Counted from the first letter of the stretch, positions 1 to 17,020 are shown. The stretch: DNA of 64,000 nucleotides from Solidesulfovibrio fructosivorans JJ] (GCF_000179555.1 NZ_AECZ01000002.1:1-64000); one strand, 5' to 3'. Translations and numbers: made by a program. Notes: generated by a model from the sequence alone, not told the origin.

Positions 1-50
1 TTGAAGGGGGGTCCGGGGGGAAACTTTTTTCAAAAAGTTTCCCCCCGGCC
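1..50. repeat. Hairpin repeat, family D, copy 1
   Basis: A perfect 15-bp inverted repeat (15-29 with 32-46) in which a G6A3CT5 arm is followed after two bases by its complement A5GT3C6. It is preceded by the GGGGTCCGGGG-type motif shared with copies near 10.85, 27.5, 49.3 and 59.5 kb. It lies just downstream of the stop of the minus-strand dehydrogenase. The A/T-rich tip and GC-rich base suggest a bidirectional terminator-like element, but there is no T-run after the stem. Confidence 0.7.
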
Positions 51-72
51 GCCGGAGGCGTCCCACCTCCTC

Positions 73-1284
73 CTACCTTAAATCGAACGCCACCTTGACG
101 CTGCCTGTGGCGCGCTTGTCGAAGGCGGTGCGAAAGGCGTCGGCGTAGGCTTCCAGGCGGAAGGTGTGGGTGAGCAGGCCCTCGGTCGGGTAGCGGCCCG
201 AGGCGAGAAGTTCGAGGGCCAGGGCGTAGGTGCGCACGCGCTGCCCGGGGCGGCGCGGATCGGGCGCTTCGGCGCAGCCCGACGACCCGGCCACGGTCAG
301 CTCCCGGAACCACAGGCTGGAAATATCCACATCCTTCAGGCGCGCCCCGGCTCCGACCATGACGTATTTGCCGCCGGCGCGAAGGGCCAGCAGCCCGGTC
401 TCGAAGGTGGACGACGCGCCCACGCAGTCGAAGACCATGTCCACGCCGCCCTCGATGTTGCCGCCGCCGAGGCTCGTGGCCACGAAGCGCCCGTCGACGG
501 CCGCGGCCAGATCCTTTTTGTTTTTCGCCCGAACGATGGCGTCCGCGCCGCCGGCCTCGGCCAGGGCCGCCTGCGCGGGATGGCGCGCCGTGACCAGCAC
601 TTTGGCGTCGCTGCCGAGCCCGCGCAGGCAGCGCACCACATGCTGGCCCAAGATGCCCGCGCCCATGACCAGCACCGTCGCCCCCGGGGCCGGGAAATGC
701 TCGAGCACGGGCTGGAGCGCCGAGGCCAGGGAGTCGGTCAGCACCGCCTCCTCGTCGGAGAGTCCGTCCGGCACCGGCAGGATGCGCGAAGGATGCGCGG
801 CCGTGCGTTCGGCCATGGCCCCGCCGGCGCGGCGGGTAAAGCCCAGAAACGACCCCGGCGGCAGGTCGCCGTCGAGAAAACGCTCGCAGCGGTTGTAATG
901 CCCCTGGCTGCACGGTCCGCACGGGGGCAATCCCCGCACGGCGCAGGGGAGTCCCGGCTCGACCACCACCCGCGCCCCGGCGGCAAGGCCGATTTCCGGC
1001 GCGTCCTCGGCCAGACCGGCCACCATCTCGTGGCCCAAAATGAAGGGCAGGCTGGCGTAGGGTTCGAGCAGCGGCGATTCCTTGCCGCGCAAGAGCCCGA
1101 GGTCCGAGCCGCAGATGCCGCACATCCGGGGAACAAGCGGCAGCCAGCCCTTGGGCGGATCGAAGGGCACGGTGGCCAGGCCCAGCGGGGCCAGCCAGGG
1201 AAAAAAGCGCCTGGGCGCGATCCGCGAGGCGGCGGCGCAGGCGAGATAGCGCGCGACGCTGCGGCGATAGACCAATGCCTTCAT
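73..1284 (-). CDS. Zinc-binding alcohol dehydrogenase of the MDR superfamily
   Basis: A 403-residue medium-chain dehydrogenase/reductase. The N-terminal GroES-like domain has the catalytic zinc motif CGICGSD (Cys55, Cys58) and the GHE motif (His85-Glu86). Cys114, Cys122, Cys125 and Cys133 form the structural-zinc lobe, and a Rossmann motif MGAGILG lies near residues 208-213. The family oxidises alcohols or polyols with NAD(P); the substrate cannot be read from sequence. The N-terminus carries an extra stretch of about 35 residues before the first zinc ligand. The ATG at 1284 was chosen because GAAAGGA lies upstream; an in-frame extension to 1344 would run into the divergent promoter region. 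It is transcribed divergently from the CBS-domain gene at 1447. Confidence 0.88.
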   Translation of the reverse strand: MKALVYRRSVARYLACAAASRIAPRRFFPWLAPLGLATVPFDPPKGWLPLVPRMCGICGSDLGLLRGKESPLLEPYASLPFILGHEMVAGLAEDAPEIGLAAGARVVVEPGLPCAVRGLPPCGPCSQGHYNRCERFLDGDLPPGSFLGFTRRAGGAMAERTAAHPSRILPVPDGLSDEEAVLTDSLASALQPVLEHFPAPGATVLVMGAGILGQHVVRCLRGLGSDAKVLVTARHPAQAALAEAGGADAIVRAKNKKDLAAAVDGRFVATSLGGGNIEGGVDMVFDCVGASSTFETGLLALRAGGKYVMVGAGARLKDVDISSLWFRELTVAGSSGCAEAPDPRRPGQRVRTYALALELLASGRYPTEGLLTHTFRLEAYADAFRTAFDKRATGSVKVAFDLR

Positions 1285-6781: not shown

Positions 6782-7144
6782 CTAGGCCGCTTCCTGAAGG
6801 CGGTAGTTGCGCAGCGCGATGCGAAGCGCGGCCACGGGCCAGTTGTCGCAGCCGAGGTGTTCGACGACGCTGGTCATGCGCGGCTGGAAATCTTCGGTGG
6901 AGACGGCCTGGGCGTCGTAGACGTTCATGCCGATCACGGTGGCGAGCAGGGCGGCGGTGCACTCGCGGGTGAAATTGCAGCTTTCGACCGCCCCGCCGGC
7001 ATCGATGATCACGTCGTTTTCGATGAGCAGCTGCACCTTGATGGCCCGGCCGCAGGGGGAGCATTCGCTCACGCCTTCGACGGTGTACCGGGTCAGGGGG
7101 GCTACGATCGGAAGAACCGTGGTGATGGTTTCGGGAGCGGTCAT
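6782..7144 (-). CDS. IscU/NifU-like iron-sulfur scaffold-type protein
   Basis: 120 residues. The pattern SECSPCGRAIKVQLLIEND, VESCNFTREC and VEHLGCDNWPVAALRIALRNYR follows the IscU/NifU N-terminal fold, with cysteines at all three cluster-ligand positions. The first site reads SPCG rather than PxCGD, so the aspartate next to the ligand is missing, and an extra Cys occurs in ESCNFTREC. It may therefore be a specialised scaffold or carrier. The ATG at 7144 has GGAGACC just upstream. A textbook -24/-12 promoter lies about 70 bases upstream and a sigma-54 activator is encoded divergently, so sigma-54 control is strongly suggested. It is a one-gene unit ending at the 6686-6724 terminator. Confidence 0.78.
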   Translation of the reverse strand: MTAPETITTVLPIVAPLTRYTVEGVSECSPCGRAIKVQLLIENDVIIDAGGAVESCNFTRECTAALLATVIGMNVYDAQAVSTEDFQPRMTSVVEHLGCDNWPVAALRIALRNYRLQEAA

Positions 7145-7210
7145 GGCGGTCTCCTTTATGATTCGGTCCGTTTGCTTTTTTGTTTTGCGTCTTGCGTGTT
7201 GCCTCTCTTT

Positions 7211-7227
7211 AAGCAACCGGTGTGCCA
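7211..7227 (-). promoter_or_regulatory. Sigma-54 (-24/-12) promoter
   Basis: On the minus strand TGGCAC-N5-TTGCTT, matching the TGGCAC-N5-TTGCW consensus at every invariant base. The expected start of transcription is near 7199, giving a leader of about 55 bases for the IscU-like gene. Confidence 0.88.
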
Positions 7228-7304
7228 TGCAGCGTATCATTTTGAAATAATAGATGATTCCTTGTATTGGTCTGATGATCGCACCGAAAGGAATATGGCA
7301 TGTT

Positions 7305-7393
7305 GCAAAAACGCATCCGAGGTTCCGGGGGATTTTTTGCGAAACCAAGGAAAATGAGCCTGTTAGAGGAAAGAAGGGATGTTGCGTTTTTGC
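7305..7393. promoter_or_regulatory. Candidate enhancer (UAS) pair for the sigma-54 activator
   Basis: The 11-mer GCAAAAACGCA occurs at 7305-7315 and as its exact reverse complement at 7383-7393. The sites sit about 100 and 185 bases upstream of the predicted sigma-54 start point, where bacterial enhancer-binding proteins normally bind. The rest of the 329-base gap (7145-7473) contains no gene. Confidence 0.5.
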
Positions 7394-7473
7394 CTCAGGT
7401 TGCGGTATTGCACAAAGGCCAAAGCCGCGGTTTGAGAAAAATGTGACGAAGCCGAGGCAATACGAGGCCAGAC

Positions 7474-8964
7474 TTGAGAAAAAAAGTACAATTGCCGGCT
7501 GACCCTGTGGCCCGCAACCTCGACGCCATCCTCGACAGCATCGAGGACGGCGTGCTCATCACCGACCACGAAGGGTACGCCCTCAAGGTCAACGCCGCCT
7601 ACGAGCAACTCACCGGCATGACCAAGCCCGAACTCGTCGGCAAAAACGTCGAGGAGCTCAAAAAAGCCGGGCTGTTCAACATCGCGCCCATCACCCCCGA
7701 GATCGTGGCCACCGGCCGCCCGGCCTCCTCCATCCAGGTCACGCGCGACAACCGGTCCATGACCATCGACGGCAAGCCGGTGCGCGACCCGGACGGCAAG
7801 GTGAGCCTGGTCGTGCTCTACGCCCGGGACATCACGCTCATGGCCCGCATGCGCGAGCGCATCTCGCGCCAGCAGGAGCTGATCGAGACCTACCAGCACC
7901 AGATGGATTTCTTCATCCGCGAGGGTGGGGGCATCACCAACTTCATCGCCGAGAATTCGTCCATGAAGCGGCTGATGGACCTGCTGCGGCGGGTGGCGGC
8001 CACGGACGCCGTGGCGTTGGTGCTCGGCGAGACGGGGGTGGGCAAGGAGCTTTTCGCCCGCATGATCCACGAGGCGAGCCCCCGGCGCGACAAGCCGTTC
8101 GTCAAGGTGGACTGCGCCTCGATCCCGGAAAATCTCATCGAATCCGAGCTGTTCGGCTATGCCCCGGGCGCCTTTACCGGCGCGCATCCCAAGGGGCGGG
8201 TGGGCTTTTTCGAGATGGCCGAGGCCGGGACGATCTTTCTCGACGAGATCGGCGAGATGCCGCTTCTGCTCCAATCCAAGCTTTTGCGCGTGTTGCAGGA
8301 CCGCGAGGTGATGCCGGTCGGCTCGAGCAAGGCGCGCAAGATCAACGTGCGGGTCATCGCGGCCACCAACCGCAACCTCGAGGCCGAGGCCCGCATGGGC
8401 ACGTTTCGCAGCGACCTTTTTTTCCGGCTGCGGGTGGCGGTGCTGGAAATCCCGCCGCTTCGCGACCGGCCGGACGACATCCTGCCCCTGGCCCGGCTTT
8501 TTCTCCAGCGCTTCGGCTCGCGCTACCGCAAGCGGGCCACGTTGTCCCTCGAGGCCGAGCGGGTGCTGGCCCATTACAACTGGCCGGGCAACGTGCGCGA
8601 GCTGGAAAACCTGATCGAGGGGCTGGTCATCACTTGCGACAGCGAGATCACGGCCGACGACCTGCCGACCCCCATGCGGATCAAGGAATGCCTGCTGCCG
8701 GCGGCGGCGACCGGCGGACCGGTGGTGCCGGCGGCGGCCATGGGCGGCCCGGACGTGCCCGTGCCGGTCGAGGTCCCCACCGGATCGGCCGTGGCCGTGC
8801 CCATGGACTGGGAGCGTCCTTATAAGGAAGTGCTGGCCGTCTTCGAACGCGACTACCTGGAGCGGGCCATCGACCACTTCGGCTCGGTCAACGAGGCGGC
8901 CAAACGCCTCGGCCTCGACCGCACGACCATTTTTCGCAAAATGAAGAAGGCTTGCGGCGAGTAG
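7474..8964 (+). CDS. PAS-domain sigma-54-dependent transcriptional activator
   Basis: 496 residues in the order PAS sensor (about 10-130), AAA+ central domain (about 155-395) and Fis-type helix-turn-helix (about 455-495). The Walker A GETGVGKE (185-192), the sigma-54 contact loop GAFTGA (232-237) and Walker [10 protein letters not shown] (253-261) are all intact. There is no receiver domain, so a small ligand or redox signal is probably read by the PAS domain. An Ala/Pro/Gly/Val-rich linker of about 50 residues precedes the DNA-binding helix pair. The start is TTG at 7474, the only standard start before the PAS domain. It is divergent from the IscU-like gene with its -24/-12 promoter, which is the probable target. 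Confidence 0.92.
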
Positions 8965-9026: not shown

Positions 9027-10625
9027 TTAGCGCTGCTGGGAAAAGGGCGCGCGCGGCACCGCGCCAAGGCCGAAGAGGTGCAAAACGACCACCACGAACA
9101 GCGCCCCGATGGCCCGCCGCATGGCCGTCAGCCGGGCCTCGCGGTAGGCGCTCATGATCCGCGGCGTATCCTGGGCTGGTATCGCGTGCTTCACCAGAAG
9201 CGCTTCAAAATCGTGGTCGGATTGCAGCTGATACATCTTCACCCGCTGGGCTTCCCGCTTCAGGGCCGGGGTGATCGGCAATTGCTCGATGTTGTATTTG
9301 AAGGCGCCGCTTAAGGAGAAAAGAAGCACCATGCCGATCACGGCGACGCCCAGGGCCTGCCCCACGTTGCGCGTCGAGGCCTGTATGCCGCCCGATTGGG
9401 CGGCGTCGCGGGCATTGACCGCCTGGGCGATGATCATGGAGGACTGGGAGGCGACAAAGCCTTGTCCCGCTCCGAGCAAGAAGAGTCCGACGATGAACCA
9501 GTCGTTTATTCCCTTGATATTCACGCCGATCCACAGGCAGAGACAGCCGAGCCCGGTGATGACGATGCCGCTTTTGCAAATGCTGTGCGGCGAGATGTTG
9601 TAGCACAGCTTCGGGATGCCCATCGAAAACAAAATCATCGGCACGGCCATGGCGATGGTGAGCAGGCCCGAGGCGGTGGGCGTATAGCCGGCGACCAGCT
9701 GCGCCCAGGTGACCACCAGAAATCCCACCGTGCCGAAGCAGATGTACAGATAGCTGGTCAAAAGCAGGCCGTCGCGGACCTGGCTGGTGCTGGTATAGGA
9801 CGAGGGAAGCAGGCACGACTGGTACCGCTTTTCGACATTTCTTTCGAAAAAATACAGCCAGACCAGAAACACCCCCCCGGCCAACACGACGAGCAGGGCC
9901 GGCGACATGCCGAAGACGACAAAGGGCGCGTAGATCGGACGGATCATCCCCCAGACCGAGATTTGCGTGATGCCGTAGATCAGGCCGAGCAGTCCCACGG
10001 CCGCCAGAATCGCCCCACGGTAATCGAGCCTGATCCCGGAATCGGATTTTTTATCCTCCGGGAGGATGACCTGGGCGAGGAGCGCCTCCACGGCGAAGTA
10101 GGCGGCGAGTCCCGCGAAGGCCCAGCGCCAGCCCGCCCCGCTGATGACGTATCCGGCCAGGGGGGGGATGAGAATCGAGGAGAGTCCGGTGGCCGCCCCC
10201 ATGCTGCCGAAGGCCAGCGCCCGATCCTTGCCTTCATAGAGCACGACGCAAAGTCCCAGTATCGAGGGCACAAGCAACGCCGCGCCAAGGCCGCACAACA
10301 CCCTGCTGACCCAGCAAAGAAAAACCATATTGGGCGCGAGGGCGAGAGAGATTTCGCCAACGACCAATATGACTGAACCGATGATGTAATTCTTCTTCCA
10401 GCCGATGGCCAAGCCAAGCATGCCGCCGAACATCATCAGCGCCCCGGTGACGAGCGAATAGATGATATTGGCCAGCTGGATCTGGTTCATTGTCGCCTGG
10501 AACGATCCGATCAAGGCGTTCGTGATCAGGTTCATTGTGGAATTGTCGCCGCAGGTTCCTATTTGAGCCACCATAAGCATGGCCAGCGAACCATACTTGG
10601 CAAATGAAGCGTTCGTATTCTTCAT
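9027..10625 (-). CDS. 14-TM MFS drug/metabolite efflux transporter (DHA2-like)
   Basis: 532 residues with about 14 hydrophobic segments, as in the DHA2 (EmrB/QacA) branch of the major facilitator superfamily. Features include GWKKNYIIGS after helix 2 and the long VLCGLGAALLVPSILGL helix resembling motif C regions. Such proteins export small molecules by proton antiport. The ATG at 10625 has AAAGGA upstream. It follows the radical SAM-ArsM fusion gene on the same strand, and a 9-bp palindrome about 90 bases upstream of the start may be an operator. The substrate is unknown; an organoarsenical or a product of the neighbouring enzyme is one possibility. Confidence 0.85.
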   Translation of the reverse strand: MKNTNASFAKYGSLAMLMVAQIGTCGDNSTMNLITNALIGSFQATMNQIQLANIIYSLVTGALMMFGGMLGLAIGWKKNYIIGSVILVVGEISLALAPNMVFLCWVSRVLCGLGAALLVPSILGLCVVLYEGKDRALAFGSMGAATGLSSILIPPLAGYVISGAGWRWAFAGLAAYFAVEALLAQVILPEDKKSDSGIRLDYRGAILAAVGLLGLIYGITQISVWGMIRPIYAPFVVFGMSPALLVVLAGGVFLVWLYFFERNVEKRYQSCLLPSSYTSTSQVRDGLLLTSYLYICFGTVGFLVVTWAQLVAGYTPTASGLLTIAMAVPMILFSMGIPKLCYNISPHSICKSGIVITGLGCLCLWIGVNIKGINDWFIVGLFLLGAGQGFVASQSSMIIAQAVNARDAAQSGGIQASTRNVGQALGVAVIGMVLLFSLSGAFKYNIEQLPITPALKREAQRVKMYQLQSDHDFEALLVKHAIPAQDTPRIMSAYREARLTAMRRAIGALFVVVVLHLFGLGAVPRAPFSQQR

Positions 10626-10710
10626 GACTCGAATCCTTTCGGACAGCGGGTGGTTTCAGACGACAATTATTGGAACTCGGCGCGGGGTCGCCGGAGAAAC
10701 GAGTATGGAC

Positions 10711-10734
10711 ATAAAGTGCTGTAACGCACTTTAT
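10711..10734. promoter_or_regulatory. Operator-like palindrome upstream of the MFS gene
   Basis: ATAAAGTGC (10711-10719), a six-base spacer and its exact complement GCACTTTAT (10726-10734). It sits 86-109 bases before the MFS start codon, a typical position for a dimeric repressor site. No regulator gene is adjacent. Confidence 0.5.
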
Positions 10735-10778
10735 TCCCGAATTCCATCGCAAAGGTGGCCAGGGATAGTTGTGAGACG

Positions 10779-10829
10779 CTTTTAATCGTGACGGTCTGCT
10801 TGGGAGTAACAGCCCGTCACGATTAAAAG
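10779..10829. repeat. Long perfect inverted repeat
   Basis: CTTTTAATCGTGACGG (10779-10794) and its exact complement (10814-10829) with a 19-base loop. It lies between the radical SAM-ArsM gene and the MFS gene. There is no T-run after the stem on either strand, so it is not a standard terminator. Confidence 0.7.
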
Positions 10830-10847
10830 TCTTTGGAAAGGGGGGCC

Positions 10848-10883
10848 GGGGGGAGTACCTTTCCGCAAGAAAGGTTTCCCCCC
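10848..10883. repeat. Hairpin repeat, family D, copy 2
   Basis: An imperfect stem with a G6 arm and ACCTTTC/GAAAGGT top, related to the copy at 1-50. It sits just after the stop codon of the minus-strand fusion gene at 10900, so it may attenuate or end that transcript. Confidence 0.6.
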
Positions 10884-10899
10884 GGTCGCATCCCGCCCC

Positions 10900-13293
10900 C
10901 TATTGCTGTGCCGGCGGGGCGAGGTTGAATTCGGCGAGTCTGTCGTGGGTGGGGAGCTTTTGCAGCAGCGCGGCGACTTCCTCCGACGGTTCGGCCGGCG
11001 TGCCGCAGCCGCAGGAATTGGTCCCGGCGTCGAATTCCGGATTGGCGATGCGGCCCGCCTCGTCCAACACGAAAATCGCCTCCGCGCGCCGGTCTTCCTC
11101 ATGGAGCGCGATTTCCTTCACCTCGCCCGCCCGCAACACCTCGCCCGAGGCCGTGACGATGGCCCTAAACGGCCCCCGGTAGAGCACCTTGCGCCGCACG
11201 GGCGCGGGCTGCGGCTTTCGCGCCACCACCGTGACCGAGTAGAACTGGTGGTCCTGCACCACGCGATACGGGAAGCGCCGCAGAAAGCGGATGCCGACGA
11301 ACCCGGATTCCTCCAGGATGGCGACGAGGTCCTTTTGCGTCAGCGTCCCGGAGATGCACTCGCCGCGAAGCGTCGGGTCGTTGCAGATGGCGGCCGTGGC
11401 CGGTGTTTCCGTGGCCACGTCGGAAAAGACGATGCGCCCGCCGGGCTTCAAGATGCGGAAAATCTCGGCGTAGAGCCGGCGCTTTCGCGTGGAGAGGTTG
11501 AGCACGCAGTTGGACGTCACGCAATCGGCCGTGGCGTCGGCAAGGGGCATGGCCTCCAGGTAGCCCTGGAAAAAGACCGCGTTGGCATAGCCCAGAACCT
11601 CGGCCGTGGCCCCCGCCGCCGTGCGCGCCCGGGCCAGCATGGCCGGCAGCATGTCCAGGCCGATGACCCGGCCTTTCGCGCCCACCTTTTTGGCGGCGAT
11701 CAGGCATTCCACCCCGGCCCCGCAGCCGAGGTCCACCATGGTCTCGCCAGGGGAGAGCCCGGCGTCGGCGATGGGCGAGCCGCAGCCGTAGCCACGCACC
11801 CGGTAGCGCTCGGGGATATGCTCCACCATGTCCAGCGGATAGTGGACCGGGTTGACGATGTCGCCTTTTTCCACCGCCGCCGCCTCGGTGTAGAAAGCCT
11901 TGATCTGCGACAGGCTGCCGGCGTCGGCGATGGACAGCAGGCAGTTGGTGTGGGCCAGGGCCACCTCGCCGTGGGCATGGCAGCTTTCGTGCATCTCGCC
12001 CATCTTGAGCGCAAGCCCCGGCCGCCCGGCGGGCAGTCGCGGGGAAACGACCCGGGATTCGCGCGCGATCATCCAGGTGGCCAACCGCTCGAGCAGCGGC
12101 TGATAGGGATCATGGCCCGAAAACGTGCCGCTGTGCCGGTAGGAGTGGTCCGGGTCGCCGCCGCCGAGAATGAAGCGCCAGGGCGCGTCGGACGCGGCGC
12201 AGGTGGCCTCGCGCAGGCCGGCCAGCACCGGGCTGCCCCTCCAGGCCGCTTCCAGGCCGCCGGCCGCGTCGCTTATGGGCGTGGCCAGGGCGTCCACGCC
12301 GATGAGCGCCGGGCTGGGGTAGAGCTTGTCGTCCGGCCCCACGGCCACGGACGTGTAGCCGGCGGTGGTGCCGTCGTGGCGCGTGCCGACCGGGGCGAAG
12401 ACCTGGGTGGCCAGGGCTTCGAGATTGTCGATGCCAAGCCCCCGGGCTTCGGCCTGCTCGGCCGCGGCGACCACGCTGCGGTAGAGCGCGTCCAGGTCCG
12501 GCTGGTCGTCGTGTTCCGCCCGGCCCACGGTGAAATGCCACATGAGATGGAGCCCGGCCGCGCCGACGTCCGCCGCCACGGTAACGACCCCCGGCAAGTC
12601 GGCCAGGTTGTCGCGCGTGGGGCAAAAGGAGAGCGTCACGCCGTAGCCGAGGGCGCGGGCCGCGCGGACATCGGCCAGAAGGCGGGTGAACGCGCCGGCG
12701 CCGCGCAGCGCGTCGTGGCGCGCCTGCAAGCCGTCGCAGCTCACCTGGAAATGGAGCCGCTCCCGGGGCCAGCGGGCAAGGCCCGGGGTGGCGTCGCCAA
12801 ATCCCGTGCCGTTGGTGAGCACCACCACATGGGCGGCCGGATCGGCCAGGGCGGCGTCGAGGATGGCCTCGAAGCCGGGGTGGAGAAACGGTTCGCCGCC
12901 GGTCAGCGCGAACACCCGGCAGCCGAGGGCCCTGGCCTGGGCGATGCGCGAAAGCGCCGTCGCCGTGGACAACTCGCGGGTCGCGGCCGGGCCGGAGCAG
13001 AAAAGGCAGTGGCGGCAGGCCAGATTGCACCGGTCCGTGACGTGGAGCCACAGTTCGGCCAGTCCGGTCAGGGGCAGGGCGGCGGCCCGGCCGGCATAGG
13101 GCGCGGGCGGGTTGTCGGGCAGGCGTTCCAGGAAAATAGATGCTTCAATGTCGGGGCGCAGGCCGTCTCCGGCCGCCAGCAAGGCGGCGTCTCCGGCGGC
13201 ATTGGGCACAAACCAGTCCGGCGCGTCGGGGCGCAGGTAGATTGCGGCGTCATCATGGGCAATCCTGGTCCAAAGCGCGGCATCAAACGGCAT
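10900..13293 (-). CDS. Radical SAM - ArsM-type methyltransferase fusion protein
   Basis: 797 residues. The N-terminal half is a radical SAM enzyme: CNLACRHC gives Cys89, Cys93 and Cys96 for the 4Fe-4S cluster (with Cys99 next to it), followed by LTGGEPFLHPGF. From about residue 485 the chain matches arsenite S-adenosylmethionine methyltransferase: VDLGCGAG is the SAM site, and GYGCGSP (Cys504), SNCVLNL (Cys596) and GECISG (Cys646) align with the three arsenic-binding cysteines, 92 and 50 residues apart. A Cys-rich tail SCGCG ends the ArsM-like part. The start at 13293 follows a GAGGG motif. Radical SAM plus ArsM enzymes are known partners in organoarsenical biosynthesis (ArsM-ArsS, ArsM-ArsL); their fusion here, next to an exporter, suggests a related pathway but not a product. 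Confidence 0.85.
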   Translation of the reverse strand: MPFDAALWTRIAHDDAAIYLRPDAPDWFVPNAAGDAALLAAGDGLRPDIEASIFLERLPDNPPAPYAGRAAALPLTGLAELWLHVTDRCNLACRHCLFCSGPAATRELSTATALSRIAQARALGCRVFALTGGEPFLHPGFEAILDAALADPAAHVVVLTNGTGFGDATPGLARWPRERLHFQVSCDGLQARHDALRGAGAFTRLLADVRAARALGYGVTLSFCPTRDNLADLPGVVTVAADVGAAGLHLMWHFTVGRAEHDDQPDLDALYRSVVAAAEQAEARGLGIDNLEALATQVFAPVGTRHDGTTAGYTSVAVGPDDKLYPSPALIGVDALATPISDAAGGLEAAWRGSPVLAGLREATCAASDAPWRFILGGGDPDHSYRHSGTFSGHDPYQPLLERLATWMIARESRVVSPRLPAGRPGLALKMGEMHESCHAHGEVALAHTNCLLSIADAGSLSQIKAFYTEAAAVEKGDIVNPVHYPLDMVEHIPERYRVRGYGCGSPIADAGLSPGETMVDLGCGAGVECLIAAKKVGAKGRVIGLDMLPAMLARARTAAGATAEVLGYANAVFFQGYLEAMPLADATADCVTSNCVLNLSTRKRRLYAEIFRILKPGGRIVFSDVATETPATAAICNDPTLRGECISGTLTQKDLVAILEESGFVGIRFLRRFPYRVVQDHQFYSVTVVARKPQPAPVRRKVLYRGPFRAIVTASGEVLRAGEVKEIALHEEDRRAEAIFVLDEAGRIANPEFDAGTNSCGCGTPAEPSEEVAALLQKLPTHDRLAEFNLAPPAQQ

Positions 13294-15948: not shown

Positions 15949-16557
15949 CTATTTGATGGTTGCTCGTGCGTGATGCGTGCCGTGCTTTTTCCAATTGCGA
16001 GGTATCTTAAAGAGAGGATTTCGTAATACAACTTTATAAGTATTTTGCCTTATAGCCCTCTCACCAATTTCACCGAAAATAGAAGATTGATTTTTCTCTC
16101 CTGATTTTCCGGAATTTATGTTAAGATTATGATCTTTAGATAATGGTATAGAACACTTGCTGTCACAAGGTGTAGAGTTTTCTAGGCAAGTATCAGTGGC
16201 ATTGCCTTGTTGGTAGACATACTTTCCAATGTAACTTCCAAGTGTGTAGAGTTCGAAAAGAAAAAGAAGTTTCATGACAGTCCAGACGCTGTTGCTTATT
16301 GCAGTTGCGTATAAGACAGAAAATAGCATGATGTGTAATGATTTGTATTGAGTGAAAAAAGCGTAGTGAGCTTTATATTTCCACTCTATAGCAGTAGTTG
16401 CCGCTGAGATTAGAATTAAATGGCAAGAAATAATATATAAGAAGTCTGGCAATAGGTGTTCATTCTTGATAAGTTCTTCTGGTAGTAATAAGAGTATCCA
16501 GGATGTGGCGATTGTTGCAGGAATAACTAGACCAGAAGAAAGGCCAAAAAGATGGAT
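15949..16557 (-). CDS. Unknown membrane protein with non-standard start codon
   Basis: The frame is open up to 16608. The stop of the upstream gene is followed directly by GGGGAGGTGA (16565-16574 on the minus strand), a nearly perfect Shine-Dalgarno, yet no ATG, GTG or TTG follows at the right distance. The first in-frame candidates are CTC at 16560 and ATC at 16557; the next standard start is TTG at 16452, which has no Shine-Dalgarno and would delete the first hydrophobic helix (LFGLSSGLVIPATIATSWIL). From 16557 the protein has about 202 residues, three hydrophobic segments and a polar tail with three clustered cysteines (CLENSTPCDSKC). A mutated start making it a pseudogene is possible. It is not recognised. 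Confidence 0.5.
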   Translation of the reverse strand: MHLFGLSSGLVIPATIATSWILLLLPEELIKNEHLLPDFLYIISCHLILISAATTAIEWKYKAHYAFFTQYKSLHIMLFSVLYATAISNSVWTVMKLLFLFELYTLGSYIGKYVYQQGNATDTCLENSTPCDSKCSIPLSKDHNLNINSGKSGEKNQSSIFGEIGERAIRQNTYKVVLRNPLFKIPRNWKKHGTHHARATIK

Positions 16558-16574
16558 GAGACTGTCACCTCCCC

Positions 16575-16946
16575 TTATTGTGTGTTTGCATATTTTTGTC
16601 GATTTTTTTTAAGAAAAGATACTTCCTTGGCTTCCCAAATGGAAATTCGCAATAACGCTCCAAAGATACTGATTAAAGTTGCTTCTGAGACAATTAGGCC
16701 AAGCCATGCAAGTATAGGGAAAAATATACTTGATTTTATTATATAAATTTTCCCAATTGATTGGATAAAAATTGTCGATGAATTCTGTAACGTATTAAAT
16801 ATATCTGATTTTATTCCCAACGCCATGGCCGAAAAAAGGAATGCATGCGAGGACAGAAGCCAACCGAGCCTTCCTGAGAGAAGGTCGTATTCGGATTTGG
16901 TTTCTTGCCTAATACACTTGTATTCTTCTAATTCTGAGAGGGCCAT
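16575..16946 (-). CDS. Unknown two-TM membrane protein
   Basis: 123 residues. A charged N-terminal helix (LSELEEYKCIRQETKSEYDL) is followed by RLGWLLSSHAFLFSAMAL, the style seen in small two-helix membrane proteins, then a second hydrophobic segment FFPILAWLGLIVSEATLISI. The tail is basic. It is the first gene of a tight two-gene unit in the AT-rich island; its stop codon abuts the Shine-Dalgarno of the next gene. No function is assigned; a helper or effector in a defence module would fit the transfer signature but is only a guess. Confidence 0.65.
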   Translation of the reverse strand: MALSELEEYKCIRQETKSEYDLLSGRLGWLLSSHAFLFSAMALGIKSDIFNTLQNSSTIFIQSIGKIYIIKSSIFFPILAWLGLIVSEATLISIFGALLRISIWEAKEVSFLKKNRQKYANTQ

Positions 16947-16984
16947 GCCGAGGCGATAAGATATAACATATTATTTGTTGTCAA

Positions 16985-17020
16985 TAAAAAAGCGGCAGAC
17001 CTCAGGTCTGCCGCTTTTTT
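16985..17020. terminator. Bidirectional rho-independent terminator
   Basis: An AGCGGCAGACC/GGTCTGCCGCT stem of 11-12 bp is flanked by A6 on one side and T6 on the other. It ends leuS on the minus strand. On the plus strand no gene reads into it. Confidence 0.93.

What the first reader, a model, noticed from the sequence alone, without database searches (positions are those of the whole stretch)
9027..13293. Radical SAM enzyme fused to an ArsM-type methyltransferase, next to a 14-TM exporter
One chain holds a full radical SAM cluster site and a methyltransferase with all three ArsM arsenic-binding cysteines at the family's spacing. Radical SAM plus ArsM pairs make arsenosugars and arsinothricin, and the arsinothricin cluster is known to encode an exporter too. 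A fused, exporter-linked version in a sulfate reducer may be an undescribed organoarsenical or other thio-selective methylation pathway.
Basis: partly seen in the sequence, partly recalled or inferred. Interest (0 to 1): 0.65.

Follow-up and report, generated by a model that had tools for sequence, protein, structure and literature searches.

The report
Fused radical-SAM and arsenic-methylating enzyme
This sulfate-reducing bacterium carries, in one protein chain, an enzyme half that should methylate arsenic and a half that should make a radical from S-adenosylmethionine; the gene pattern across hundreds of related genomes suggests it replaces the two separate enzymes that start arsenosugar synthesis, while the neighbouring pump is probably just a bystander.

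Summary
In detail: ORF 10900-13293 (-), 797 aa, is one chain with a radical-SAM half (C89/C93/C96) and an ArsM-type half (C504/C596/C646, equivalent to CmArsM C72/C174/C224). All six cysteines, plus two linker cysteines (C438, C451), are invariant in 40/40 homologues. The predicted fold matches ArsM at Z 27 and the sactipeptide maturase CteB at Z 28.5. The fusion is widespread in Desulfobacterota and found throughout Solidesulfovibrio. Elsewhere it carries a third domain, DUF5714, missing in Solidesulfovibrio. Function is inferred from company: 31/33 fusion genomes have the arsenosugar-associated glycosyltransferase TIGR04283 (15.6 expected), adjacent in several lineages, while only 1/33 has the canonical arsenosugar radical-SAM enzyme ArsS (10 expected). 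The window's genome has no ArsS and no other ArsM-like hit of comparable strength, but has TIGR04282+TIGR04283 side by side elsewhere. Best reading: a fused, non-orthologous replacement of ArsM+ArsS forming methyl-As and adenosyl-As bonds; substrate and product are untested. The exporter link is not supported: the pump is absent from the syntenic site of the closest relative, found at no other fusion locus examined, and separated by strong hairpins.

The parts
10900..13293 (-). Radical SAM-ArsM fusion protein, 797 aa
13114..13293 (-). N-terminal small domain (residues 1-60), fold aligned with the N-terminal part of the sactipeptide maturase CteB (probably a vestigial peptide-recognition-like domain)
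   Evidence: CteB 5wgg aligns over model residues 6..416, Z 28.5; StsB family model NF045574 aligns from residue 7 in a relative
12046..13074 (-). Radical SAM domain with degenerate SPASM-like tail (residues 74-416); auxiliary-cluster cysteines absent
13006..13029 (-). CX3CX2C [4Fe-4S] site, C89/C93/C96
   Evidence: 40/40 conserved
11941..11982 (-). Linker motif CxxHGxVAxxHxNC with C438 and C451
   Evidence: both Cys 40/40 conserved
11209..11847 (-). ArsM-type methyltransferase domain (residues 483-695)
11782..11784 (-). Cys504, equivalent of CmArsM Cys72
11506..11508 (-). Cys596, equivalent of CmArsM Cys174
11356..11358 (-). Cys646, equivalent of CmArsM Cys224
10903..11208 (-). ArsM-like C-terminal part and Cys-containing tail (residues 696-797); most homologues continue here into DUF5714, which is missing in this genus
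10846..10885 (-). Strong hairpin just after the fusion's stop codon
   Evidence: z -2.7; sequence partly shared with L031
10779..10829 (-). Second hairpin, 20-nt arms, between fusion and exporter
   Evidence: z -7.3
9027..10625 (-). MFS (DHA2-like) exporter; neighbour, probably not part of the system

Best explanation
The protein is a bifunctional carbon-arsenic bond-forming enzyme that does the work of the separate ArsM and ArsS proteins. Proposed mechanism: As(III) is held by C504/C596/C646 and methylated with SAM (inferred from family and invariant ligands). The methylated arsenical passes, perhaps via the invariant linker cysteines C438/C451 (speculation), to the radical SAM half, where the [4Fe-4S] cluster on C89/C93/C96 cleaves a second SAM to a 5'-deoxyadenosyl radical that adds to arsenic, giving an adenosyl-arsenical as ArsS does (inferred from replacement of ArsS). 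The product would feed the TIGR04282/TIGR04283 glycosyltransferases towards arsenosugars or arsenolipids. Shown: domain make-up, invariant cysteines, predicted fold, distribution, association with the glycosyltransferases and near-exclusion with ArsS. Inferred: arsenic as substrate, order of steps, adenosyl as the transferred group. The radical SAM half is of RiPP-maturase type with its auxiliary-cluster cysteines lost, not an ArsS relative beyond the common core. The exporter next door is not part of it.
For: MT half: best profile arsenite methyltransferase, fold 217 aa at 2.0 A and 38% identity to CmArsM, Z 27 against about 20-21 for other methyltransferases, ArsM cysteines invariant, clusters among ArsMs. 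Pathway: in 395 genomes of the phylum the fusion is in 33, TIGR04283 in 187, ArsS in 120; fusion and TIGR04283 share 31 genomes (15.6 expected, p 4e-9), fusion and ArsS share 1 (10 expected, p 1e-4; 1e-13 within TIGR04283-positive genomes). TIGR04282/TIGR04283 genes flank the fusion in L056, L102 and others and TIGR04283 lies within 6 kb in 9 of the 25 fusion genomes whose glycosyltransferase position was listed. The window's genome has no ArsS, no other strong ArsM-like match (next 69.8 bits), but has TIGR04282+TIGR04283 adjacent on contig 52. Precedent: SsArsM+SsArsS start arsenosugar synthesis (PMC8552651) and ArsS adenosylates arsenic (PMC12159101).
Against: Not biochemically tested. The MT half scores below NF008823's cut-off. 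The radical SAM half resembles ArsS only in the core (columns 83-223) and lacks ArsS's C-terminal cysteines, so the group transferred may differ. 'Arsenosugar' is NCBI's predicted name for TIGR04282/4283; no evidence seen here shows these proteins acting on arsenic. In Solidesulfovibrio and the second genus of its family the glycosyltransferases are not adjacent. Genomes share ancestry, so the p-values overstate independence. Two fusion genomes lack TIGR04283 and one has both fusion and ArsS. No Acr3 above cut-off in this genome.
Confidence: 0.6

Rival explanations
1. [quoted passage not shown]
For: Second-best MT model is arsinothricin ArsM NF040538, covering also the C-terminal part; ArsL, like this protein, has only the three cluster cysteines conserved (PMC8552651).
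Against: The match is far below that model's 500-bit cut-off; no ArsL model appears among the best 25 families; no ArsQ-type (GntP) permease, the window's pump being MFS; genomic partners are the arsenosugar glycosyltransferases.
Confidence: 0.13
2. A thiophilic-substrate enzyme for another element or cofactor (selenium, antimony, a thiol compound), with arsenic ligands retained by descent.
For: The cysteine triad binds soft ligands generally; sulfate reducers live with sulfide; association with rhodanese, VTT-domain and FAD-disulfide reductase-like genes in some loci.
Against: Near-exclusion with ArsS and co-occurrence with TIGR04283 mirror ArsS itself (114/120 ArsS genomes have TIGR04283).
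Confidence: 0.17
3. A RiPP (peptide) maturase fused to a methyltransferase: the radical SAM half modifies a precursor peptide.
For: Predicted fold best matches CteB including its N-terminal domain; StsB sactipeptide-maturase model aligns from residue 7 in a relative.
Against: No conserved small ORF beside the fusion in the loci examined; SPASM auxiliary cysteines lost; arsenosugar gene company.
Confidence: 0.06
4. One reading: a fusion-exporter pair forming one export-linked organoarsenical pathway.
For: Same strand and adjacency in this genome.
Against: Exporter absent at the syntenic site in G115 and from the other fusion loci examined; only a 31%-identical homologue elsewhere in one of 13 congeners; 274-bp gap with two strong hairpins.
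Confidence: 0.04

Closest known systems
ArsM / AS3MT arsenite S-adenosylmethionine methyltransferases (CmArsM 4fr0, CrArsM 5evj, human AS3MT 8xt7; NF008823)
   Same: Fold, SAM-binding core, three As-binding cysteines, C-terminal small part with cysteine-containing tail
   Different: Fused behind a radical SAM domain; scores below the NF008823 cut-off; single cluster of its own in the tree
ArsS arsenosugar radical SAM (TIGR04167), with separate ArsM
   Same: Same inferred slot in the genome: occurs with TIGR04283 and nearly never together with the fusion; CX3CX2C core
   Different: Only the radical SAM core aligns; ArsS has a cysteine-rich C-terminal part that the fusion lacks; separate protein, in some genomes a selenoprotein
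ArsL/ArsM/ArsQ arsinothricin cluster
   Same: Radical SAM plus ArsM pair making carbon-arsenic bonds; single cluster in ArsL
   Different: Separate genes, GntP-type permease; model scores far below cut-off
CteB / SkfB / SuiB-type RiPP radical SAM maturases
   Same: Architecture and fold of the N-terminal half (Z 24-28)
   Different: Auxiliary Fe-S cysteines lost, no precursor peptide found, fused to ArsM
MbdU / DUF5714 metal-binding (seleno)protein
   Same: C-terminal third domain of most homologues
   Different: Absent from the window's protein and genus

Membership tests
ArsM arsenite methyltransferase | As-binding cysteines at the C72/C174/C224 positions | tested here: met
   C504/C596/C646 align with CmArsM; 40/40 invariant
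ArsM arsenite methyltransferase | ArsM fold and closest sequence relationship | tested here: met
   Z 27 to 4fr0/5evj, above other methyltransferases; best NCBIfam NF008823
ArsM arsenite methyltransferase | Score over the curated cut-off of NF008823 (263 bits) | tested here: not met
   195.7 bits; relative L038 216.3
ArsM arsenite methyltransferase | Methylates arsenite | not testable with these tools
   needs an assay
ArsS (TIGR04167) | Score over curated cut-off (300 bits) | tested here: not met
   53 bits, core only
ArsS (TIGR04167) | Conserved C-terminal cysteines (VMCR, YDCDFNQ, CYGCTAG..SSC) | tested here: not met
   absent in the fusion family
ArsS (TIGR04167) | Genomic company of TIGR04282/TIGR04283 | tested here: met
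   31/33 fusion genomes have TIGR04283; adjacency in several loci
Arsinothricin ArsM (NF040538) | Score over curated cut-off (500 bits) | tested here: not met
   161.7 bits
SPASM-domain RiPP maturase | Auxiliary [4Fe-4S] cysteines of SPASM | tested here: not met
   Cys replaced in the aligned region (YPSAALVG), no conserved Cys there
SPASM-domain RiPP maturase | Adjacent precursor peptide | tested here: not met
   no conserved small ORF within 900 bp; distant precursors not searched
DHA2 MFS exporter (neighbour) | TIGR00711 over cut-off | tested here: not met
   79 of 230 bits; MFS_1 met

The most novel reading that the evidence does not exclude
An unrecognised, phylum-wide family of one-chain enzymes, built from a RiPP-maturase-like radical SAM domain, an ArsM and a metal-binding-type DUF5714 domain, arose independently of ArsS to make adenosyl-arsenicals, so anaerobic sulfur- and metal-reducing bacteria hold a second, separately evolved route to arsenosugar-type compounds.
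Probability: 0.4. Interest if true: 0.75.

Novelty: new variant of a known kind. Interest (0 to 1): 0.6.

Why it matters
If right, it shows that radical carbon-arsenic bond formation was invented more than once, places arsenosugar-type biosynthesis in anaerobic sulfate and metal reducers, and gives a single protein in which transfer between the two SAM-dependent steps can be studied. It also gives DUF5714 (unknown function) a first functional context. The prediction is directly testable with one purified protein and arsenite.

Tried and rejected
Exporter as part of the system: rejected. Viral carriage: none found. RiPP precursor near the fusion: only antisense artefacts of conserved flanking genes. 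DUF5714 elsewhere in Solidesulfovibrio: none in 9 genomes, with two positive controls. Rooted tree of the MT half: the fusions form one cluster (67/95 support) among ArsMs, but the outgroup rows have branches too long to trust, so the exact sister group is unresolved. Literature: no held paper mentions DUF5714 and none found describes such a fusion; the library holds open-access papers only, so an earlier description elsewhere is possible. A primary arsenosugar-pathway paper was not held; the ArsS results are cited through PMC8552651 and PMC12159101.

Full report
OBSERVATION. The 797-aa protein has Radical_SAM at 85-222 and a class I methyltransferase at 514-664. The best curated model for the MT half is arsenite methyltransferase NF008823 (195.7 bits, cut-off 263), followed by other ArsM models. 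The best PDB matches are all ArsMs: CrArsM, CmArsM, human AS3MT (8xt7 is human AS3MT). C504, C596 and C646 sit on CmArsM C72, C174 and C224.

FAMILY. The same fusion occurs in the other Solidesulfovibrio genomes searched (69-92% identity) and in a second genus of the family (45-49%), and in Desulfobacterota generally, with single MAG hits labelled Campylobacterales, Acidobacteria, Myxococcales and Anammoximicrobium that may include binning errors. Outside Solidesulfovibrio nearly all complete members are about 1,020 aa and end in DUF5714 (Pfam PF18978), a domain related to the metal-binding selenoprotein MbdU (MbdU is listed among prokaryotic selenoproteins in PMC13188914). In 395 genomes of the phylum, every fusion genome except the window's own also has DUF5714, in nearly all in the same open frame. 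Nine Solidesulfovibrio genomes lack it altogether. The window's protein is therefore a shortened member of a three-domain family.

CONSERVATION. In 40 diverse members C89, C93, C96 (radical SAM), C438, C451 (linker) and C504, C596, C646 (ArsM) are all 40/40. The region where SPASM cysteines would lie has none conserved.

STRUCTURE. AlphaFold2 on the 40-row alignment gives pLDDT 85, pTM 0.84. The N-terminal half aligns with the sactipeptide maturase CteB over 6..416, Z 28.5; the C-terminal half with CmArsM over 483..736, 217 residues, 2.0 A, 38% identity, Z 27, against about 20-21 for other methyltransferases. The radical SAM half matches the ArsS profile only in the core.

COMPANY. Around fusions of distant bacteria the recurring neighbours are TIGR04282 and TIGR04283 ('arsenosugar biosynthesis glycosyltransferases' in NCBIfam), a VTT-domain membrane protein (11 loci) and a mercuric-reductase-like FAD oxidoreductase. 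In the phylum sample: fusion 33 genomes, TIGR04283 187, ArsS 120. Fusion and TIGR04283 together: 31 (15.6 expected). Fusion and ArsS together: 1 (10 expected). ArsS and TIGR04283 together: 114 of 120. Nine of 25 located glycosyltransferases lie within 6 kb of the fusion. The window's genome has no ArsS, no second strong ArsM-like hit, and TIGR04282 next to TIGR04283 on another contig. All 11 high-quality Solidesulfovibrio genomes have TIGR04283. The simplest reading is that the fusion fills the slot of ArsM plus ArsS. Relatedness among genomes weakens the p-values, but the pattern spans many families.

EXPORTER. In the closest relative (92% identical fusion) the flanking genes are in the same order but the exporter is missing. 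None of the other fusion loci examined has it next to the fusion (some contigs are short), and among 13 other genomes of the genus only one 31%-identical homologue exists, elsewhere. Two strong hairpins lie between fusion and exporter. Its GC content is somewhat lower than its neighbours' (0.60 against 0.64-0.70). It looks like a local insertion.

MECHANISM. Shown by sequence: two SAM-using domains with intact ligand sets in one chain. Inferred: As(III) methylation by the ArsM half, then addition of a SAM-derived radical to the methylated arsenic by the radical SAM half; adenosyl is preferred because the fusion takes the place of ArsS, whose reaction is adenosylation of arsenic (PMC12159101). 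Aminocarboxypropyl transfer as in ArsL (PMC8552651) is the main alternative within arsenic chemistry.

LIMITS. No biochemistry; names of TIGR04282/4283 are predictions; the tree's outgroup is poor; the paper library is open-access only.

Noticed in passing
window 15949-17000: AT-rich island (GC 0.37 against 0.65) between a CaCA-type antiporter gene and leuS with two small ORFs on the minus strand; looks recently acquired.
   Followed up: no
window 6782-8964: A small ORF and a divergent sigma-54-dependent regulator; the regulator family sits beside the fusion in other Solidesulfovibrio (L051, L052) and in a Desulfobacteraceae MAG (L093), so it could control it.
   Followed up: partly
L055:191-1279: A stand-alone ArsM-like methyltransferase lies directly upstream of the fusion, i.e. 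both forms side by side.
   Followed up: no
L098 and L068: Fusion gene appears interrupted or split in these Desulfuromonas MAGs (frameshift or assembly error).
   Followed up: no
own genome C3:177767-178528 and genus scan: The window's genome has no Acr3 arsenite pump above cut-off although 10 of 14 genomes of the genus do; ArsB was not searched.
   Followed up: partly
G227, G374, G407, G324: Some fusion genomes carry a second, stand-alone DUF5714 gene; in G227 it lies directly beside the fusion.
   Followed up: no
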